Shown piece after piece: positions 18,087 to 32,315 of a stretch of 33,966 nucleotides of DNA. Within the stretch, counting starts at the first letter, position 1. Every line of letters starts with the position of its first letter. The notes under the pieces were generated by a model. The model was not told where the DNA came from. It did not search any database and saw only the letters and a program-made list of their open reading frames with translations. This DNA is from Elusimicrobia bacterium GWA2_51_34. GTDB lineage: Bacteria > Elusimicrobiota > Elusimicrobia > Elusimicrobiales > UBA9959. The stretch lies in contig MGTS01000021.1 in the NCBI GenBank assembly GCA_001799565.1, positions 1 through 33,966 on the forward strand, in the 5' to 3' direction. Made by a program: the position numbers and the translations under genes.

Positions 18087-18866
18087 TTATTCTTTTGCAA
18101 TCACTAAGACATCTATTTCCTCATTCATAATATATTCCCCATTACGAGCACAATTCCCATCAATAAAATCGGCTATTTCTTTAAGTTTCAGTTCCGTATA
18201 TTTATCAACATTGCCAATTTCTTTCTTAATTTTATCATCTGAAATATTTACCGGATGCAGCCAACTCTCAAGGGTAAACAATTTACAAATATTAAAAAAA
18301 TCATTAAATGATTTAGTCTTAAAATTAAAGCTTATTGGCACAACTTCCGCGGATATCCCCATATCATGTAAATCCTTCAATATATCATGTGTTGTAGTAC
18401 TATATCCGAAAAAGAATTTCTTATAAAAATCATGTGATTGTCCGAACGGAGAAACCATAATAATAGCCATCTTCCCGTTTGGGGCCAGATGGCTATATAT
18501 TTTTTTTATAAAACCAGCCTGTTTCTCCCGTTTTACAAGCCAAAACACATGACTGCAAAGAATAAAATCAAAATTTTGTTTTCCGAATGCCACAGTCTCA
18601 AAGTATCCGTTAATAAATTCAATTCCTTTCGACTCAAAAATATTTTTCACCTGTTTATTAGGTTCAACAACGGCTGTTTTTTTAAAAAACTTAGCCAATC
18701 GAAAAGTCAAATCCCCATCCCCTGCGCCGATATCCAAAAAAGAATCATGTTTCTGAAGTTTTAAAATTGTTTTTGTCATAGCACTTTCGACCTTTTCTTT
18801 TTCGGTGGTGCATTTTACGTAGGTTTCATGCCATTTTTTATAAACTTCATCGTTTATTATTTCCAT
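18087..18866 (-). CDS. Class I SAM-dependent methyltransferase
   Basis: A 259-residue cytoplasmic enzyme. The SAM-binding motif I is FLDIGAGDGDLTFRL (about residues 42-56), the acidic end of strand 2 is AVVEPNK, and motif post-I is NFDFILCSHVFW. The methyl acceptor is unknown. GC content is strikingly low compared with mlaE and alr, and codons favour A/T. The gene sits beside a broken receiver fragment, so it was probably acquired horizontally. GGGGGGGCA just before the ATG gives a strong ribosome-binding site. Confidence 0.85.
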   Translation of the reverse strand: MEIINDEVYKKWHETYVKCTTEKEKVESAMTKTILKLQKHDSFLDIGAGDGDLTFRLAKFFKKTAVVEPNKQVKNIFESKGIEFINGYFETVAFGKQNFDFILCSHVFWLVKREKQAGFIKKIYSHLAPNGKMAIIMVSPFGQSHDFYKKFFFGYSTTTHDILKDLHDMGISAEVVPISFNFKTKSFNDFFNICKLFTLESWLHPVNISDDKIKKEIGNVDKYTELKLKEIADFIDGNCARNGEYIMNEEIDVLVIAKE

Positions 18867-23820: not shown

Positions 23821-23887
23821 AGCAGGGTAATGATAGCAAATCAGCGCGGCCTGTTTCAATGGCAATTCACAGGGGGGCTCCCTGCTA
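23820..23887 (-). promoter_or_regulatory. rpsF leader with start-codon-proximal stem
   Basis: TAGCAGGG and CCCTGCTA pair perfectly (8 bp) across about 52 bases; the second arm ends at the first base of the rpsF start codon. S6:S18 autoregulation through an rpsF leader is known in several bacteria, and both proteins are encoded in this run. Whether the CCG-containing motif of that regulator is present (an AGGCCGCG lies in the loop) needs structural comparison. Confidence 0.45.
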
Positions 23888-23904
23888 ATGCAAGGGGGTA
23901 TACT

Positions 23905-23932
23905 ATTGTACCATTATCACAAAATCCGCCAA
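23905..23932 (-). promoter_or_regulatory. Promoter of the rpsF-alr run
   Basis: On minus, TTGGCG (23927-23932), a 16-bp spacer and an extended -10, TGG-TACAAT (23905-23910), about 80 bp upstream of the rpsF start. Confidence 0.55.
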
Positions 23933-24002
23933 CGTGGTCTTTGGAGGAGCAAAGTCCGGCGTCAAAAGAACAATTCGCGTGTTTATTTCAACGGCAAGCT
24001 TC

Positions 24003-24087
24003 TTACCGAAGTCATGCCCGAAAAGTTTTTTCCTTTTGGTTTTTTTATTAGAAAACACCTATTCCGGGATGCGGTTTGCGCCATCTA
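24003..24087 (-). repeat. Direct repeat copy A, downstream of zapA-like gene
   Basis: On minus this reads CAAACCGCATCCCGGAATAG, then GTGTTTTCTAATAAAA and later TTTTCGGGCATGACTT. It matches copy B (24552-24637) over about 80 bp with indels. In copy B the same bases code for the C-terminus (KPHPRIG) of the DnaA-like protein; here they would read KPHPGIGVF and stop. No gene leads into it, so it is a detached gene end. The rest of 23933-24101 holds no recognisable gene. Confidence 0.65.
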
Positions 24088-24101
24088 TAACTTGGAAGAT
24101 T

Positions 24102-24452
24102 TCATTTTTCACAAATCCGACTGACTTCGACTTTTTGTTTTGAATTATATAGTTCGACGGCAAATTCAAAGGCGGCAAGGGCGCACAACTTAGCGGTGTC
24201 GGCCACTTCTGTTTTTTCCTCTATCCGCTTTATTCTTTCTTCAACTTGGCAGGCTATTGAACTTATTTCTATCGGCGATAGCCCTTCAACGGCAACAGTT
24301 ATTGAACGGCCTCTTATTTTTATCTGGGTTTCGACATTAGTTATGGGTTTCCTCCCACCGCTAAGCAGTTCCACCTGTTTTTTCAGCACGGCGTTCTCTT
24401 CTTCAAGCCGGGAAATAAGCGCCGCAGTTTTTTCCTGGTTTTCCATATTCAT
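24102..24452 (-). CDS. zapA: ZapA-like cell division protein
   Basis: A 116-residue protein. Residues about 4-30 are predicted coiled coil (ALISRLEEENAVLKKQVELL). The ZapA-type domain follows: QIKIRGRSITVAVEG, then EISSIACQVEERIKRIEEKT and DTAKLCALAAFEFAVELYNSK. ZapA cross-links FtsZ filaments at the division ring. In canonical ZapA the coiled coil follows the globular domain, while here a coiled stretch comes first. ATG 24452 (MNMENQ) or 24446 (MENQ) may be the start; CGGA lies close upstream of both. The frame extends to 24614 but that part is repeat copy B. It is flanked by direct repeats A and B. Confidence 0.7.
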   Translation of the reverse strand: MNMENQEKTAALISRLEEENAVLKKQVELLSGGRKPITNVETQIKIRGRSITVAVEGLSPIEISSIACQVEERIKRIEEKTEVADTAKLCALAAFEFAVELYNSKQKVEVSRICEK

Positions 24453-24551
24453 TCCGCTGCAAGTTATGTTTGCACACAGACTCTTTTGCGGTTTTAAAGC
24501 AGCAACCATTATCTGACGATAATCCAAGATATTATGTCCCCGATTTTGCTC

Positions 24552-24637
24552 CCCTAAAGTCATGCCGGAAAGATTTTTATTAAATTTATTAGACCTTCGG
24601 GCGTGGGAGAGCACCTATTCTGGGGTGCGGTTTGCCT
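24552..24637 (-). repeat. Direct repeat copy B, upstream of zapA-like gene
   Basis: Covers the last ~16 codons of the DnaA-like gene (GKPHPRIGALPRPKV and stop) and about 40 bp beyond, ending CCGGCATGACTTT. Copy A lies about 550 bp away in the same orientation, so the zapA-like gene sits between two direct repeats. About 20 bp of this copy (CGCCCGAAGGYCTAATAAAT) recur at the start of the homing-endonuclease gene (27094-27113). Confidence 0.7.
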
Positions 24638-25721
24638 TCATTCGGTTCTTTAGAGTTTCTGAACTGCTTCCAGAATTTTTTAACATCTGCATCGCGCTTC
24701 TTACACATTCTCTTAAAATCAAGCTCTCCGTCTTTACCTATTATCGGCTCCTCGCGTGGAAAAACGGGTCTTTTCAGAGCAGGGCATTTAACCTCAACTC
24801 GGTGCATTTCCACAAATTTAACTGTCCGCACAATCATAGGCGGCATTCCGGCGTAAACCGCGTTAGTCCCGGGCCCAGCCCAATTCCGGTCCAAAGCGAA
24901 CCGCTTCGCTTCCCGAATGGCGCCAGTCGGCGTTTTATGGCGGGTGATGTTAACATAGTCGGACATGTCTCCTTCATAGTCAATGATGTTGTAGTAGTAA
25001 GTCTTGTCCTCAACGCCACCTTTGCAGTCGGTTAAAATAATCTCGCGCGGCCCGTCTTTTTGAACACTGACTTTAACCTTAATCGATTTTCCAGGCCTTT
25101 CTAACCCCTGAGGTCTTGGAGAATTTTTTGCCTCTATTTTGTTTGATAATTGGAATATAGTCTCGGCAAAACGAGTATCCTCCCGCATATCACGCAATAT
25201 AATCTTCTTTGCAAACGCAACAGCAATCAGGCTTTGATTGAAGGCCTTTCCTACTTTAGCTGCACTAAGGCCGCATAATTCGCAGGCCAGGTAGATAGCT
25301 ATTTTACGCGATCGGGCAGACGCTTCCACACGCTCTTTAGAGCTAAAATCCTTTGCGTCAACGCCCACATCTGTCCGGGGAAATTCCGCCACATATCACA
25401 AAAAATTGGCGTAAACAGCCGTATTTATGCGTATTTCCCTGCGGAAACCGTCATGCTTGACTTTTAAAACGCTCAACGACGCAAGCCATCCCCCAAAATG
25501 GACATGATTCTGCATTTCCCGGTTTTGCCGCCTTACCGGACAGCACCGCTAAATTGACATAAAATCCCTTTCTCATAGGAGATTTGGCCTATTCTAAGGT
25601 CCGACTCGGTTTACACCCCACCCCAGTTTAAAACTTTCCCCGGACAGCTGTGGTCAACGCCATATTTATCAGCCACCACGTTTTTTATCAGGTCTATAGT
25701 AATTTTTTTCTTTTCCCCCAT
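24589..25721 (-). pseudogene. DnaA-domain-IV-like protein gene split by a MITE
   Basis: The first part (ATG 25721, GGGGG ribosome-binding site about 7 bp upstream) encodes MGEKKKITIDLIKNVVADKY then GVD. The second part resumes GVDAKDFSSKERVEASARSR, KIAIYLACELCGLSAAKVGK and on to the stop at 24589. Joined without the element 25366-25652 and one target copy, they give one 278-residue frame. Residues about 7-90 match the DnaA DNA-binding domain IV (compare DnaA ITVENIQ..VA and ARQIAMYL.RELT..S..EIG.AF). The DHTTV base-contact motif is replaced by SLIAVAF. The remaining ~185 residues are unrecognised. Without excision only a 36-residue peptide, or a product from an internal GTG at 25392, could be made. 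Confidence 0.75.
25366..25652. mobile_element. 287-bp MITE-like element with 9-bp target duplication
   Basis: Terminal inverted repeats match at 18 of 20 positions: CACATCTGTCCGGGGAAATT at the left and, reverse-complemented, CACAGCTGTCCGGGGAAAGT at the right. GTCAACGCC is duplicated directly outside both ends (25357-25365 and 25653-25661). There is no transposase gene inside. Removing the element plus one duplicate restores the reading frame of the interrupted gene exactly. The 9-bp duplication fits several families, such as IS256 or IS4; I cannot choose among them. Confidence 0.88.
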
Positions 25722-25821
25722 ATTAATTCCCCCCGTTCCGAACTATGTTTAAATTACCGGCAAGGCGAACCACCGTCTGCCTCTGATACAGATTCCTCCG
25801 CTAAAGCCCCTTTTTCCTTGA

Positions 25822-27117
25822 TTAGATTTTTCGTGTTTTACACACAGCAGAATATGCAGATTTTGTTGAGTCAAAATATTTGTGAATTGCGGCACCCAAG
25901 CACGATGCCCAATTTGCCACATCTTTCCCTGAATCTGGCTTACCACGTCTATTCCAAGCAGTGACAAATGCTCCAGGAGAGCAATTATGGGTTCTATGCC
26001 ACTTTGCGAGTTCCTTGACCAACAATTTTTTAGTCCATGCAGTCGTGCTTTCTTCCGGTTGGCCAAGCGCGAAACGGAGTTGTCTTATCCCCCTAAACCA
26101 TTTCTGTATATAGATTGCGACAGTGTTGTAAGCGAAACCCTTTCGATTTGTGAATTTGCCTCTTTTCCGAAGCCACTCTTCTGTGGGGAAAATCCCTCCG
26201 GGCATAGTCTTTGCGATTTGTTTGCAGGTCTCAAGCAGTTCATCGGCATCAGACCAGTGAGACGTCTCAATTCCTATATCATAAAAGTGCTTATGTTTTC
26301 GGAGATTATTGATTTTTTTACCGATATAGGGTTTAAGAAGCTTTGAAATACTATAGTCACTATAACAATCTTGAAATTGTAATCCCAAAAACAACGGATT
26401 ACTACCATTAAACCGTTCTTTTTGTTCTCGCTTTGTGGCGTAGTCAGCTTCATTATGCCCCAAAGGTTTATCCCCCCAAATTTCGACATCAATCCATTTC
26501 CTATTACACGCCTTAAATTGCAGATCATAATATCCATATGCCCTGCCAGTCATACGCGTGTATTCGTCTGGATAACGTCTTCCTTTTTTGTGTGACACTC
26601 CCCTTGCATAAAGGTAATCTGATAAAGACTTTTCCGCACGACTTCTCCAACGCAACCCATTTCGTGACACAAAAAATGCGGAATTGGCTTCGTCATGAAA
26701 ATAATCCCGAAGGTCTCCCCACGTTTTACCGAGAGTATATATTGATCCTACTATCCCACTTAAGTTGTTTTTATGAAACCAGCCAGCCGGAGGGAGATAC
26801 CCCAATTTCTTTCTAATTTTTGAAACGCTCCGGATAAGTCTTTCCCAATTCCATCTTTTTACGATCTTACCCGACGCGCACTTATAGCTCCAAGTTTCGA
26901 ACACATGCTTTTGGTATTGTTTCTTTAGCCCAAGATATGCAATGAGTTTTTTTTGTCCGATTCCCTTTAAGTAAAAGGCATTACACAAGCCCCGTGACTT
27001 AACCAATTGTTGGTATTCAAGTGCACGAATTCCATGTTTTCGGTAAAGCCTCCAGCAATAATCAATCAACTCCTTGCGGGTGTAGTCTTTGAATTTATTA
27101 GGCCTTCGGGCGCTCAT
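25822..27117 (-). CDS. Homing-endonuclease-like protein
   Basis: A 431-residue protein. The central region (residues about 170-245) has the spaced acidic pattern of a PD-(D/E)XK/Vsr-like nuclease: RSRAEKSLSDYLYARG, then YGYYDLQF, then WIDVEIWG. At least three segments resemble the homing-endonuclease-associated repeat (an LGxxP...FxxxW..L pattern): KLGYLPPAGWFHKNNLSG...GKTWGDLRDYF, FPTEEWLRKRG...WFRGIRQLRFALG, and CSPGAFVTAW...KYFDSTKSAYSAV. These repeats are DNA-binding helix bundles. AGGTG lies 7 bp upstream of ATG 27117. GC content is low. Family assignment is by eye and the nuclease fold should be confirmed. No disrupted host gene or intron is visible around it. Confidence 0.55.
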   Translation of the reverse strand: MSARRPNKFKDYTRKELIDYCWRLYRKHGIRALEYQQLVKSRGLCNAFYLKGIGQKKLIAYLGLKKQYQKHVFETWSYKCASGKIVKRWNWERLIRSVSKIRKKLGYLPPAGWFHKNNLSGIVGSIYTLGKTWGDLRDYFHDEANSAFFVSRNGLRWRSRAEKSLSDYLYARGVSHKKGRRYPDEYTRMTGRAYGYYDLQFKACNRKWIDVEIWGDKPLGHNEADYATKREQKERFNGSNPLFLGLQFQDCYSDYSISKLLKPYIGKKINNLRKHKHFYDIGIETSHWSDADELLETCKQIAKTMPGGIFPTEEWLRKRGKFTNRKGFAYNTVAIYIQKWFRGIRQLRFALGQPEESTTAWTKKLLVKELAKWHRTHNCSPGAFVTAWNRRGKPDSGKDVANWASCLGAAIHKYFDSTKSAYSAVCKTRKI

Positions 27118-27187
27118 GATATTACACCTATTATCTATCCCAAAAATTCTCTCCGTGGATACCCCCAACAGCCGGAACAGCTAACCT

Positions 27188-27769
27188 TCAACCCGGGCCG
27201 GCAGATTCTTGATTTTTTCTCCTAGATATTTCCGCATGGCTAAAGATCTTTATCAATTCAATATTTTCCACTTTACCGCAATTAATCTCCCAATCGTACC
27301 GGAACGGTTGGCCCAAGATGTTAAGAAAAGAAACCTGTAGAACCCCGGAAACATCGCATAGTTGTTTTCCGGATATTGCCCATTCAAACGGCTTACCCGG
27401 TGGAAGTGCAGGGGTTTCCTTGCTGAACTCAATCGTTCCAAGAGTATTTCTGAACTCAACCACAATTTTAAGGGCAACCCCTTTACCGACATTAAGCAAC
27501 TTAAAGTTAACTGGGGCGTCAGGCTGGCCCAACGCAACATTGTTCTGGACAAGATTTATTACCAAGAGGAAAGGCGCATTATCCAGTTCATAAGCCTTCC
27601 GGGTTTCCTGGCGTAGCAGGCGTGTTTCCCAACTGTACCAAATGATTACAGAATAGGTGAGAAACAGAATGATATCCGTGAGTCCTGAAGCCTTGTACAA
27701 GTAAAAAACCATCGCCGAACTCAGGACAATCAACCCAGGAAACCAATATATTTTAAAGATTTGCTTCAT
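27188..27769 (-). CDS. Membrane protein with Ig-like soluble domain
   Basis: A 193-residue protein with two N-terminal membrane helices (about residues 8-27 and 30-47), a short charged stretch (SWETRLLRQETRKAYELD), then a beta-rich domain of ~110 residues (LLVINLVQNNVALGQP, NFKLLNVGKGVALKIVVEF, LPPGKPFEWAISG). The pattern of a neutral asparagine after V-G-K-G suggests an immunoglobulin-like fold. It begins 2 bp after the AAA+ stop codon, whose last codons provide AGGA, so the two are coupled. I recognise no family. Confidence 0.75.
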   Translation of the reverse strand: MKQIFKIYWFPGLIVLSSAMVFYLYKASGLTDIILFLTYSVIIWYSWETRLLRQETRKAYELDNAPFLLVINLVQNNVALGQPDAPVNFKLLNVGKGVALKIVVEFRNTLGTIEFSKETPALPPGKPFEWAISGKQLCDVSGVLQVSFLNILGQPFRYDWEINCGKVENIELIKIFSHAEISRRKNQESAGPG

Positions 27770-27771
27770 AT

Positions 27772-29073
27772 TTATCCTGCCTCTTCCCGCACTACTGCGG
27801 AAAAGCCCACGGCGGCTTTCGTTGTGTCTTGGTAGAAGCCGCGGTAGGTTCTATTGATAATACCTAGCAACTCCGCTTTATCAAGGCCTTCCCGACCGTT
27901 GGTGCGTTTGCGGATTACGGCCTGCTTTACAAGGTTAGACAGGAAAGCGCCCACCACTTCCTTTCCCCGTAGAAGTGCCAGCACGTCGCTATCTTCAAAC
28001 AGTTTTAGTATTTCCTGGTCGTCGGTACGCCGTCTTACCAAATCAAGATAATTTTTGGGTTCAAGCGCGCCTACGTCAATTACCTGGTCAAACCGGCCCG
28101 GACGGCTGGCGGCCATATCAAGCATAGCCTTGTCATTGGTGGTCGTTAAAACGAAAACATGGTTTTCCACAAAACCATCCAATTTTTGCAGAAAAGTGCC
28201 AAGTACATTCTTATTAAACGTTTGTGTCCGATCCCCCACTATAAGGTCTAAATCGTCCACGCATAATATAGCGGGGTTGAAAATATTTGCGAACGAAAAC
28301 AACATGTTTAATCGTGCATCCCCTCCGCTTGCGAGTATTATAGTGGCCTTCCCCTCGCAAGCTTTGGCTATGGAGCGCACGATCTGGGTTTTGGCGGTGC
28401 CCGGCGGGCCGGACAGAATATAGCGCATGGATAGATTCAGATCACCGTACCGGCCAACGCATTCAATAAATTGGTGGAGATCCCGCGATACCGCCGCCGG
28501 AAGAAAAACATCCTCAAGCGCGGAATTGCCGAGGTCTTTAACTATCTCAATTCCCAGCCCAAAAGGGTCCTCATCATCACGCTCCGCCGGGGCCTCTAGT
28601 ACCCGCAATATTTTCCCCTTATACATTGAATTGTTAATGGCTTCATGTATAAGCAGATCCCGCAAAGCGTCCGGACGCTTTGCTTCCGGTGATGTTCCCG
28701 AAATGATTATTTCATGGACAATCCCTCTTATCTCATGATGCATTCTCAAAAGACTCACATAATAATCCGCATCCGCGTATTTGATCCGGGCATAAATATA
28801 ACTATCCTCTATGCGGACAAGCCCTGTTTCGGTTTGAAACGAGGTTCTTGGTTTTGTGAGCACAGGATGTTCAATTGATACCATTCCGTTGAAGGAGTCT
28901 ATTTTTACGCCGGGGTGGGCAAGTATGCCGGAATAGAGCGCGTGGATGTAAGTCTTCAAAAAGTCAAATACCCAGCTATTGATTTCCTTGCTGGAACTGA
29001 AAACATCAACACTATCCGATTTGCCCTGGTTTTCTCCCCTCATAAAGGGCATTCTCTTATATCTTCGGCTCAT
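27772..29073 (-). CDS. AAA+ ATPase of unknown role
   Basis: A 433-residue protein. Residues 1-190 are an N-terminal region with mixed alpha/beta character, unfamiliar to me. The AAA+ module follows: Walker A SGPPGTAKTQ (about 220-229; Ala where Gly is usual), Walker B AILCVDDLDLI (second acidic residue is Asp), sensor 1 VLTTTND, and the arginine-finger segment SRPGRFDQVIDV. A C-terminal helical lid ends the protein. The RPGRFD finger places it with the classic AAA clade (Cdc48/FtsH/proteasome type). A perfect AAGGAGG precedes the ATG. It follows the lipoprotein gene and is coupled to the membrane protein gene. Confidence 0.85.
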   Translation of the reverse strand: MSRRYKRMPFMRGENQGKSDSVDVFSSSKEINSWVFDFLKTYIHALYSGILAHPGVKIDSFNGMVSIEHPVLTKPRTSFQTETGLVRIEDSYIYARIKYADADYYVSLLRMHHEIRGIVHEIIISGTSPEAKRPDALRDLLIHEAINNSMYKGKILRVLEAPAERDDEDPFGLGIEIVKDLGNSALEDVFLPAAVSRDLHQFIECVGRYGDLNLSMRYILSGPPGTAKTQIVRSIAKACEGKATIILASGGDARLNMLFSFANIFNPAILCVDDLDLIVGDRTQTFNKNVLGTFLQKLDGFVENHVFVLTTTNDKAMLDMAASRPGRFDQVIDVGALEPKNYLDLVRRRTDDQEILKLFEDSDVLALLRGKEVVGAFLSNLVKQAVIRKRTNGREGLDKAELLGIINRTYRGFYQDTTKAAVGFSAVVREEAG

Positions 29074-29103
29074 ATAATCCTCCTTGCAAGCGCACCAATA
29101 CGC

Positions 29104-29793
29104 CTATTTGCCCCCGCCGAATAATCCGGTAATTTTTCCTAAAAAAGATTTCCCGCCGTTTTCCGTTCCCGGCGCCTGCGCCGGCGGTTTTTCCGGGGTT
29201 TTTGCCGGGATATCTTTCGCGTCAGGGTAGTTATAGACCGGCAAATCTGGCGTCTCCACAAATTTTTTGCTGTCCTTCGCAATAATGTCCTTAAAAATTC
29301 CCTCAACCCTGCCGGACTTTAGTATTTCGCCGCCGGGTCCGTGAAGTATCTCATAATACAGGCGGGTGCGGGCAATGCGTTGGATTTTTGAAGAAGAAAA
29401 AAGACCGGACTTCGCCTTCCCGTAGTCCACACCACAATCAAGAAGTCGGTAGGCAAGAACATATGGCATGGGCGCTTCCTGGCCGGCTTCCTGCGCGGCG
29501 GTTTTTGCGACTATTTTTTGAGTAGGCGCGGTAAGCGTCCACACTTTTACAGAAAGGCTCTCGTTTAATGCGTCCCTTACAATAATACCGTTCGGCACGC
29601 CTTCGTTCCAAAGCGGTTTAATTAATATTCTTTTCTGGTTAAGCAATTCTTTGTTTTGTGAAGCTATTTTGCGCCCGGCATCCAGAGCGGATTCATATAT
29701 GGTTTCGTAATTAGCCGCATACTCAAACCGTTTAGAGGTTGACGCACAGCCGGCCAAAAGTGTAAATATTAAAACAATTAAATATTTGCTCAT
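29104..29793 (-). CDS. Lipoprotein of unknown family
   Basis: A 229-residue secreted lipoprotein. The signal peptide MSKYLIVLIFTLLAGC ends in the lipobox LAGC; the +2 Ala predicts outer-membrane retention in Gram-negatives. The mature part has a helical start (NYETIYESALDAGRKIASQNK), a central beta region (LAYRLLDCGVDYGKA) with one cysteine, and a Pro-rich linker (residues about 195-215) before a short GGK-rich end. ATG 29793 has GGGGGA close upstream. It sits between the small membrane peptide and the AAA+ gene, with a 30-bp gap to the latter. Confidence 0.82.
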   Translation of the reverse strand: MSKYLIVLIFTLLAGCASTSKRFEYAANYETIYESALDAGRKIASQNKELLNQKRILIKPLWNEGVPNGIIVRDALNESLSVKVWTLTAPTQKIVAKTAAQEAGQEAPMPYVLAYRLLDCGVDYGKAKSGLFSSSKIQRIARTRLYYEILHGPGGEILKSGRVEGIFKDIIAKDSKKFVETPDLPVYNYPDAKDIPAKTPEKPPAQAPGTENGGKSFLGKITGLFGGGK

Positions 29794-29831
29794 ATTTCCC
29801 CCTATCACCGTAGCTTAACCGCGGCTTTTTC

Positions 29832-30074
29832 CTATTTTTTTTCGTTCAGACCAGCGCTTTTATCAGCGCCTCTACATTCGGCCCGCCGATCAATCATTCT
29901 TTTTATTAGTTCTACTGTGATTACCAGGGAAAACCCAAGAATCACATCACCATATATAGACGATTTACTCAAAAGTTTTCCAGTAATCGCATAGCAAACA
30001 ATCTCCACCACAAGCACGAACCCGAATACGAATAAGATGCTTTTAGCGACCCCAAGCAAGCTTCTAAATCTCAT
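29832..30074 (-). CDS. Small two-helix membrane protein
   Basis: An 80-residue protein with two hydrophobic helices (about residues 10-30 and 43-58) and a charged C-terminus rich in Arg/Lys/Glu. AGGTAGG precedes the ATG and overlaps the stop of the HTH gene 8 bp upstream, so it is translated with it. No family recognised. Confidence 0.7.
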   Translation of the reverse strand: MRFRSLLGVAKSILFVFGFVLVVEIVCYAITGKLLSKSSIYGDVILGFSLVITVELIKRMIDRRAECRGADKSAGLNEKK

Positions 30075-30082
30075 AAAATTAC

Positions 30083-30619
30083 CTACCTTTTCCTAAATAA
30101 TTTCTTAAACTGACTCTCTATCCACGGCTGAGGCTCATATTTTATCGTCCACAAACTACCATCCGGTGATTCAACCGTTATTGCAAAGGGACGATCTTTG
30201 CCATATTTCTTTCTGATACTGGCCCTGATTTTGGGGATGTCAGACCATGTGAAGCTTTCAATTTTATTGTCCTGTGGAAACATTTTTCCAAGCCCGACGT
30301 CTATCCCCACCTCGGCTTTCAATTTATCAGAAAGAGGCTCAATCTTAGCCTCCAATTTATCAGGAATGGCCTCGATTTTGGCTTTATCATCTTCCGTCCC
30401 CACTCGTTTACGGCTTATCTTATACGTTTCTATGTCTGTTTTTCTAAACAACCAGGTTTTCCCTACCTGTCCCCAAGGCTTAAGTCCTTCAGGTTTATCC
30501 TTTTCAATCCTCATTATATGGCGCACCGATGCGTAGTTGTAACCGAGGTGGTCAGCCGCTTGTTCCGTAGTTAGCAAATCCTCCCCTGTTTCGGGATCAC
30601 AAAGGTATTTTTCTTTCAT
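30083..30619 (-). CDS. HTH regulator with C-terminal domain of unknown role
   Basis: A 178-residue protein. Residues about 15-62 are a MerR/excisionase-type winged helix: LLTTEQAADHLGYNYASVRH, then WLFRKTDIETYK. A heptad-like linker follows (KIEAIPDKLEAKIEPLSDKL), likely coiled coil for dimers, then a ~70-residue domain (SFTWSDIPKIRASIRKKYG, ITVESPDGSLWTIKYE). It is the first gene of the island run, and its upstream region carries a palindromic operator, so it probably controls its own transcript and the genes that follow. Confidence 0.75.
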   Translation of the reverse strand: MKEKYLCDPETGEDLLTTEQAADHLGYNYASVRHIMRIEKDKPEGLKPWGQVGKTWLFRKTDIETYKISRKRVGTEDDKAKIEAIPDKLEAKIEPLSDKLKAEVGIDVGLGKMFPQDNKIESFTWSDIPKIRASIRKKYGKDRPFAITVESPDGSLWTIKYEPQPWIESQFKKLFRKR

Positions 30620-30634
30620 ATTTTTATCACCACA

Positions 30635-30669
30635 TTGTTGTAATATATTACAATGATGTTATACAACAA
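30635..30669 (-). promoter_or_regulatory. Operator/promoter region of the island run
   Basis: A perfect 16-bp palindrome, TTGTAATATATTACAA (30638-30653), is overlapped by an outer inverted repeat, TTGTTGTA (30635-30642) and TACAACAA (30662-30669). On minus a -10-like TATATT lies in the palindrome and a TTGTTG, 16 bp away, could be the -35. Binding would block the promoter, the pattern of an autoregulated HTH gene. Confidence 0.6.
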
Positions 30670-30722
30670 AATCACCCTTTTGTCAAGGGCTTTTAGATTT
30701 TTAGGTTTTTTAGAGCGGAAAT

Positions 30723-31504: not shown

Positions 31505-31612
31505 AACAAGTTGCAAGTCACAGGTCACAGGTCACAAGCCAGAGGTACAGAAAACAAGTTACATATTACTGGTTACTGGTTACTGGTTACCGGTCACTGG
31601 TTACTGTTCACC
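31505..31612. repeat. 7-bp-word repeat between the nucleotidyltransferase and methyltransferase genes (R14)
   Basis: Heptamers GTCACAG, GTCACAG and GTCACAA in the first half, then GTTACTG (three times), GTTACCG, GTCACTG and GTTACTG in the second. It fills the whole gap, and its last bases overlap the stop of the gene at 31608. The words resemble R13 (first half) and R3 (second half). Confidence 0.92.
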
Positions 31613-32315
31613 GGCCACTTTCCACATACTTACGCAGGCTTTCCAGTTTTTCAATACTGCCGATGTCCTGCCAGTAACAAGCGTCTTCCCTGAAGCCCAT
31701 TATTTTTTCGCCTTCCGCCGCCAGCCGCAGGTACACATCGGTAATGGAAAATACGCCCGATTCCGTCATTTTTTCAAAGATGTCCGGCGAAATAACCTGA
31801 ACCCCGCTGAATGCGAGCGAAGTAAGACCGACAGGGATCTCTCCGGCTTGAAGCCTGCCCTTCAGGCTCAGTCCGCCGTCAAAAAGCAGCTGCCGGGCGG
31901 ACGGCCTTTTTTTTACTGCGAGTGTGGCAAGCGCCCCGTTCTTTAAATGCGCGGCGTAAAGCGCGGCGAGATCAAGATCCGTGAAGACATCGGAGTTATG
32001 CATAAAAAAAGGCTTCCCGTCGTCAAAAAAACAGGCCGCTTTTTTCAGCCCGCCGCCGGTTTCAAGCGGAAAGTAAATTTCAGGTGAAATATCTATATGT
32101 ACACCGAAATATTCTTTTTCAGCCAGGAAGGAGAGTATTTTATTGTGCAGGTGATGAACATTTATCACCAGAGAATCGGCGCCCGCGCTGATAAGGCGGC
32201 GTATGACTGTTTCTAGCATGCATATGCCGCCCACTTCCACCAGTGCCTTTGGGATATTGTCGGTGAGCGGTTTGAGCCGCGTACCGCGGCCCGCGGCAAG
32301 TATCATGGCTTTCAT
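31608..32315 (-). CDS. murU: Sugar nucleotidyltransferase, MurU-like
   Basis: A 235-residue cytoplasmic enzyme. The nucleotide-binding start is AAGRGTRLKPLTDNIPKALVEVGG (G-x-G-T-R-x-x-P-x-T...P-K, quoted in part), a metal Asp lies in FMHNSDVFTDLD, and ETGGG marks the sugar loop. The length and the neighbour, an AmgK-like kinase, fit MurU, MurNAc-alpha-1-phosphate uridylyltransferase of the peptidoglycan recycling bypass around fosfomycin-sensitive MurA. Related enzymes act on other sugar phosphates (RmlA, ManC types), so the sugar is inferred. No ribosome-binding site precedes the ATG; repeat R15 lies immediately upstream. Confidence 0.7.
   Translation of the reverse strand: MKAMILAAGRGTRLKPLTDNIPKALVEVGGICMLETVIRRLISAGADSLVINVHHLHNKILSFLAEKEYFGVHIDISPEIYFPLETGGGLKKAACFFDDGKPFFMHNSDVFTDLDLAALYAAHLKNGALATLAVKKRPSARQLLFDGGLSLKGRLQAGEIPVGLTSLAFSGVQVISPDIFEKMTESGVFSITDVYLRLAAEGEKIMGFREDACYWQDIGSIEKLESLRKYVESGR

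What the first reader, a model, noticed from the sequence alone, without database searches (positions are those of the whole stretch)
27188..30669. Candidate new membrane-associated AAA+ system
Five genes read as one run behind an autoregulatory-looking operator: HTH regulator, two-helix peptide, outer-membrane-type lipoprotein, AAA+ ATPase with a new N-terminal domain, and a membrane protein with Ig-like domain, with coupled starts. None but the AAA+ and HTH modules has a recognised family. Cytoplasmic ATPase, inner-membrane and outer-membrane parts together suggest envelope remodelling, secretion or defence. Lower GC and the adjacent homing-type nuclease and MITE mark it as acquired.
Basis: inference. 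Interest (0 to 1): 0.66.

Follow-up and report, generated by a model that had tools for sequence, protein, structure and literature searches.

The report
Acquired island with autoregulated AAA+ module
A recently inserted 6.9-kb DNA island in an Elusimicrobiota bacterium carries a five-gene run whose recurring core is a self-regulating DNA-binding protein next to an unusual ATPase with a shortened pore loop; the envelope genes beside it look like local add-ons, so a defined five-part 'new system' is not supported.

Summary
The five genes exist as described and read as one codirectional run (gaps 8, 38, 30 and 2 nt). They start behind a near-consensus promoter, and an 18-bp inverted-repeat operator overlaps its -10. 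Related operators lie upstream of most relatives of the HTH gene. The run sits in a ~6.85-kb insertion (about 23,870-30,720). Both sequenced congeners lack it: rpsF there directly abuts the methyltransferase gene.

The five-part system is not conserved. The lipoprotein has one weak relative in 295 phylum genomes, fused to an outer-membrane barrel. The last membrane protein has none. The ATPase has one full-length relative (42%), in an operon with MoxR and metallopeptidase-vWA-like genes. What recurs is the pair regulator + AAA+ ATPase. The regulator family occurs in 12 of 295 genomes, and in two other families of the phylum it adjoins an AAA+ gene with the same shortened pore-loop region but a different N-terminal domain. 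Related loci contain an integrase, DNA methyltransferase or DUF1016 genes.

Best reading: an acquired, autorepressed AAA+ remodelling or chaperone module (Bcs1/YjoB-like in action, not a threading unfoldase), with membrane proteins as exchangeable anchor or clients. Defence is possible but unproven.

The parts
30646..30663 (-). operator TATAAC-ATCATT-GTAATA, overlapping the -10 hexamer; a second exact 16-nt palindrome TTGTAATATATTACAA at 30638-30653 overlaps it
   Evidence: conserved upstream of relatives of the regulator; rank 2 of 33,949 positions with a leave-window-out matrix
30658..30686 (-). promoter TTGACA-17-TATAAC
   Evidence: sequence, 11 of 12 consensus positions
30083..30619 (-). 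P0005, HTH_17 regulator with conserved C-terminal domain (178 aa)
   Evidence: family found in 12 of 295 phylum genomes, own genome included; alignment A6
29832..30074 (-). P0004, 80-aa protein with two predicted TM helices, both ends predicted cytoplasmic
   Evidence: hydropathy; coding bias; no family
29104..29793 (-). P0003, lipoprotein (lipobox LLAGC, Ala at +2)
   Evidence: one relative, in G151, 27% identical and fused to an outer-membrane barrel
27772..29073 (-). P0002, AAA ATPase: N-terminal domain 1-~180, AAA ~184-411, shortened pore-loop-1 region
   Evidence: full-length relative L006, 42%
27188..27769 (-). P0001, two TM helices plus soluble domain predicted cytoplasmic
   Evidence: no relatives in 295 phylum genomes
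25822..27117 (-). P0006, nuclease-like ORF with repeated modules (same island, 70 nt downstream; may or may not be cotranscribed)
   Evidence: no relatives found
24592..25392 (-). ORF with DnaA domain-IV-like HTH, same insertion
   Evidence: Bac_DnaA_C E=1e-7
24105..24473 (-). second, diverged ZapA-like gene inside the insertion
23870..30720 (.). the ~6.85-kb insertion between rpsF and a methyltransferase gene; GGNAATTCA at both edges (possible 9-bp target duplication)
   Evidence: flanks adjacent in both congeners

Best explanation
The run is cargo on an acquired island and is built around a regulator + AAA ATPase module. Step 1 (supported by conserved sites, binding not shown): the HTH_17 protein P0005 binds an 18-bp inverted repeat over its own promoter and represses the run. 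Step 2 (inferred): when repression is lifted, P0002 assembles into a ring. Because its pore-loop-1 segment is about 10 residues shorter than in FtsH, it probably does not thread and unfold clients; it more likely encloses or reshapes folded clients under its N-terminal domain, as Bcs1 and YjoB are thought to do. Step 3 (speculative): P0001, whose gene is 2 nt downstream and whose soluble domain should face the cytoplasm, tethers the ring to the inner membrane or is its client. P0004 and the lipoprotein P0003 are strain-specific membrane effectors or clients. The AAA N-terminal domains and the partner genes differ between loci, as in modules whose target specificity turns over fast.
For: Operator: 7 of 9 regulator genes have an upstream site matching all 12 consensus positions, reached by 0-7 of 500 shuffles (the consensus came from these sites). 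With a matrix built without the window, its site ranks 2 of 33,949 positions and overlaps the -10. Recurrence: the P0005 family in 12 of 295 genomes; AAA gene adjacent on the same strand in G180 (L045) and divergent, 99 nt apart, in G210 (L047), with N-terminal domains that do not match P0002's. Short pore-loop region in P0002, L006, L045 and L047 against FtsH and an ~8-residue gap against p97 and AFG2. The L047 AAA aligns to YjoB (7w42) over 213 vs 210 residues. Insertion shown by two empty sites. In-frame coding bias for all five genes.
Against: Regulator-AAA adjacency rests on three loci, the window included; most relatives of the regulator have other neighbours. The P0002 model is poor (pLDDT 52), so ring shape and N-domain fold are not established. 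A Bcs1 relationship was not found by sequence (Pfam BCS1_N absent; no Bcs1 in the top 60). No evidence links P0001, P0003 or P0004 physically to the ATPase.
Confidence: 0.42

Rival explanations
1. Anti-phage defence: the AAA ATPase (or the regulator) senses infection and the small two-helix protein P0004, with P0001 and the lipoprotein, damages the envelope.
For: Weak IetA-profile similarity of the AAA part (E 4.5e-14). Related regulator loci carry a DNA methyltransferase and an integrase (L045), a DUF1016 nuclease and RhuM/Fic (L026). Acquired and strain-specific.
Against: No recognised defence gene among the six proteins scanned; the IetA match covers only the generic AAA region and no protease partner was recognised. 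NCBIfam IteA score 44.7 against a cut-off of 510.
Confidence: 0.25
2. No system at all: unrelated accessory genes collected on one mobile island behind one promoter.
For: The lipoprotein, P0001 and P0004 have no recurrent partner; the only full-length AAA relative sits with MoxR and vWA-like genes, not with any of these.
Against: Tight spacing on one strand, shared promoter and operator, and recurrence of the regulator-AAA pair with conserved operators.
Confidence: 0.25
3. A virus-derived assembly ATPase: a remnant of an assembly chaperone carried by an integrated element.
For: The closest full-length relative is in an operon with MoxR and metallopeptidase-vWA-like genes, a pair described in jumbo phages (PMC7824862). 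Some AAA proteins of phages lack the same loop, and viral AAA proteins align over the full length in structure search (poor model).
Against: No structural, packaging or lysis gene recognised in the insertion; no viral contig or phage encodes a close relative.
Confidence: 0.08

Closest known systems
YjoB of Bacillus subtilis (PDB 7w42)
   Same: N-terminal domain plus one AAA domain; the L047 relative aligns with equal spacing through the pore-loop region. Chamber-type chaperone role is from my own knowledge of the literature, not read here.
   Different: P0002 itself did not list YjoB among its top 60 hits, where two-domain p97 chains crowd the list; the N-terminal domain was not compared; YjoB is not known to me to have this regulator.
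Bcs1 (mitochondrial AAA translocase of folded Rieske protein; PMC12219900, PMC11143374)
   Same: possible likeness in action only: a domain ahead of a single AAA domain, and handling of folded clients at a membrane
   Different: P0002 has no transmembrane helix and no BCS1_N match
IetAS anti-phage system
   Same: AAA domain similarity
   Different: far below the curated cut-off; no protease partner recognised
MoxR / metallopeptidase-vWA chaperone pair of jumbo phages (PMC7824862)
   Same: the nearest full-length relative of P0002 adjoins such a pair
   Different: no MoxR relative found in the window's own genome with that query (no positive control)

Membership tests
IetAS | IetA ATPase above curated score | tested here: not met
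   44.7 bits against 510
IetAS | IetS protease encoded alongside | tested here: not met
   no protease among the six proteins scanned
Bcs1 | N-terminal transmembrane helix | tested here: not met
   no segment above hydropathy threshold in P0002
Bcs1 | Bcs1-specific domain | tested here: not met
   no BCS1_N hit
Bcs1 | wide heptameric ring acting on folded protein | not testable with these tools
   needs purified protein
YjoB-like AAA ATPase | AAA domain with the same spacing through the pore-loop region | tested here: inconclusive
   met for relative L047; P0002 shares the short spacing but was not directly aligned to YjoB
Threading AAA unfoldase (FtsH/p97 type) | pore-loop-1 segment of canonical length | tested here: not met
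   segment about 10 residues shorter than FtsH; gap against p97 and AFG2
AAA (Pfam PF00004) | Walker A, Walker B, sensor 1, arginine residues | tested here: met
   E=4.4e-18; GPPGTAKT, CVDD, N313 and R324/R327 in the alignment; Walker B has D in place of E
HTH_17 autoregulator | HTH_17 domain | tested here: inconclusive
   25.5 bits against a cut-off of 27; conserved across 9 relatives
HTH_17 autoregulator | conserved operator at own promoter | tested here: met
   (sequence conservation only; binding not tested)

The most novel reading that the evidence does not exclude
An undescribed Elusimicrobiota island module: an autorepressed HTH regulator plus a short-pore-loop AAA ATPase with exchangeable N-terminal domain and exchangeable (here membrane and outer-membrane) partners, acting as a specificity-switching chaperone or defence machine.
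Probability: 0.25. Interest if true: 0.62.

Novelty: new variant of a known kind. Interest (0 to 1): 0.4.

Why it matters
If the pair is a real module, it gives a regulator with a readable operator that can be used to find its cargo across a poorly studied phylum, and it would extend the non-threading AAA ATPases, whose bacterial roles are little known, to mobile islands.

Tried and rejected
Lipoprotein + AAA pair as recurrent unit: rejected. N-terminal domain of P0002 shared with phage AAA proteins: only a ~30-residue S-x-Y-x-G stretch, profile probability 13%, not claimed. Eag/SciW- or START-like fold of that domain: best E 3e-3 from a weak model, left as a lead. P0003 fold: model unusable (pLDDT 39). 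Viral, phage or plasmid relatives of P0001, P0003, P0005 and P0006: none found in the combinations searched. Own genome MoxR partner: none. RNA elements: none. Weak N-domain hit in G303 lies in a histidine-kinase-like ORF.

Full report
What is there. The window lies on contig C21 (270,604 bases) of a 2.63-Mb genome. A relative of the same family carries the record title Elusimicrobium minutum, so the phylum is taken as Elusimicrobiota. Five minus-strand genes run from 30,619 to 27,188: P0005 (HTH_17), P0004 (two TM helices), P0003 (lipoprotein), P0002 (AAA) and P0001 (two TM helices plus a soluble domain). Gaps are 8, 38, 30 and 2 nt. Each gene scores best in its own frame with codon usage from core genes.

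Acquisition. In both other genomes of the genus, rpsF and the methyltransferase gene that flank this region are adjacent. The break lies at about 23,870 and 30,720, and both edges show GGNAATTCA, so a ~6.85-kb insertion is the simplest reading (loss from both congeners is the alternative). Its GC is lower than that of most flanking genes. The insertion also holds a nuclease-like ORF, a DnaA-domain-IV-like ORF and a second ZapA-like gene.

Who recurs with whom. P0003: one relative in 295 phylum genomes, in G151 (27%), fused to a barrel domain, near a TPR gene and a DUF1016 nuclease. P0001: none. P0002: one full-length relative, in G030/L006 (42%), between a SAM synthetase gene and MoxR, a 191-aa ORF and a protein with a HELLH motif and a vWA-like end (the vWA reading is mine from the sequence; PHROG hit phrog_1314). 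A MoxR-vWA pair with N-terminal metallopeptidase is reported in jumbo phages (PMC7824862). P0005: matches in 12 of 295 genomes, 8 genera, own genome included.

The recurrent pair. In G180 (L045) an AAA gene follows the regulator on the same strand; in G210 (L047) it is divergent, 99 nt away. Both AAA domains resemble that of P0002 (29% and 35% over ~162 residues) while the N-terminal domains do not. In G208 (L026) a 194-aa protein resembles those N-terminal domains without an AAA domain (E 2e-7). L045 also holds a phage-type integrase, a DNA methyltransferase and, by eye, a serine recombinase; L026 holds RhuM/Fic, ORF6N and DUF1016. Most other relatives of the regulator do not adjoin an AAA gene, so this is an association, not a rule.

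The operator. Seven of nine regulator genes have an 18-bp inverted repeat T[GA][TC][TA]AC-N6-GTAA[CT]A within 100 nt upstream. Two pairs come from the same genus (L026/L049 and L050/L051), so five lineages are independent. The consensus was derived from the same sites. A matrix built without the window still ranks its site second of 33,949 positions. It covers the -10 of a TTGACA-17-TATAAC promoter, the usual place for a repressor. Repression itself is inferred.

The ATPase. Walker A, sensor 1 and arginine residues are present; Walker B carries Asp-Asp. The stretch that holds the pore-loop-1 aromatic in FtsH is about 10 residues shorter, and p97/AFG2 alignments need an ~8-residue gap there. 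L006, L045 and L047 share this. The L047 relative aligns with YjoB over equal lengths. Hence a chamber-type or remodelling action is preferred over threading; this is inference. The structure model is too weak to use.

Verdict. Real, acquired and regulated; not a conserved five-part envelope system. The interest is the regulator-operator-AAA pair. Cellular function is open, with chaperone/remodelling (0.42), defence (0.25) and chance grouping (0.25) as the main options.

Noticed in passing
24105-24473: A second, diverged ZapA-like gene lies inside the insertion; the genome's own copy is at C7:28118 and both congeners have only the latter type.
   Followed up: partly
24580-24603 and 27089-27112; 24009-24079 and 24557-24635: Short repeats (86-92%) link the start of the nuclease-like ORF and the left part of the island, suggesting repeated rearrangement or a decayed copy.
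   Followed up: partly
24592-25392: ORF with DnaA domain-IV-like HTH and an unknown C-terminal part.
   Followed up: no
25365-25653: Inverted repeat of 19 nt (95%) bounding ~290 bp, MITE-like; copies elsewhere not searched.
   Followed up: no
18087-18866: Low-GC (about 34%) methyltransferase-like gene, probably another acquired piece.
   Followed up: no
L006 1025-8081: Two SAM synthetase genes flank an AAA / MoxR / 191-aa / metallopeptidase-vWA-like gene run in G030.
   Followed up: partly
31544-31613: Short tandem repeat, 14-nt period (GTTACTGGTTACTG-like), between the methyltransferase and nucleotidyltransferase genes.
   Followed up: no
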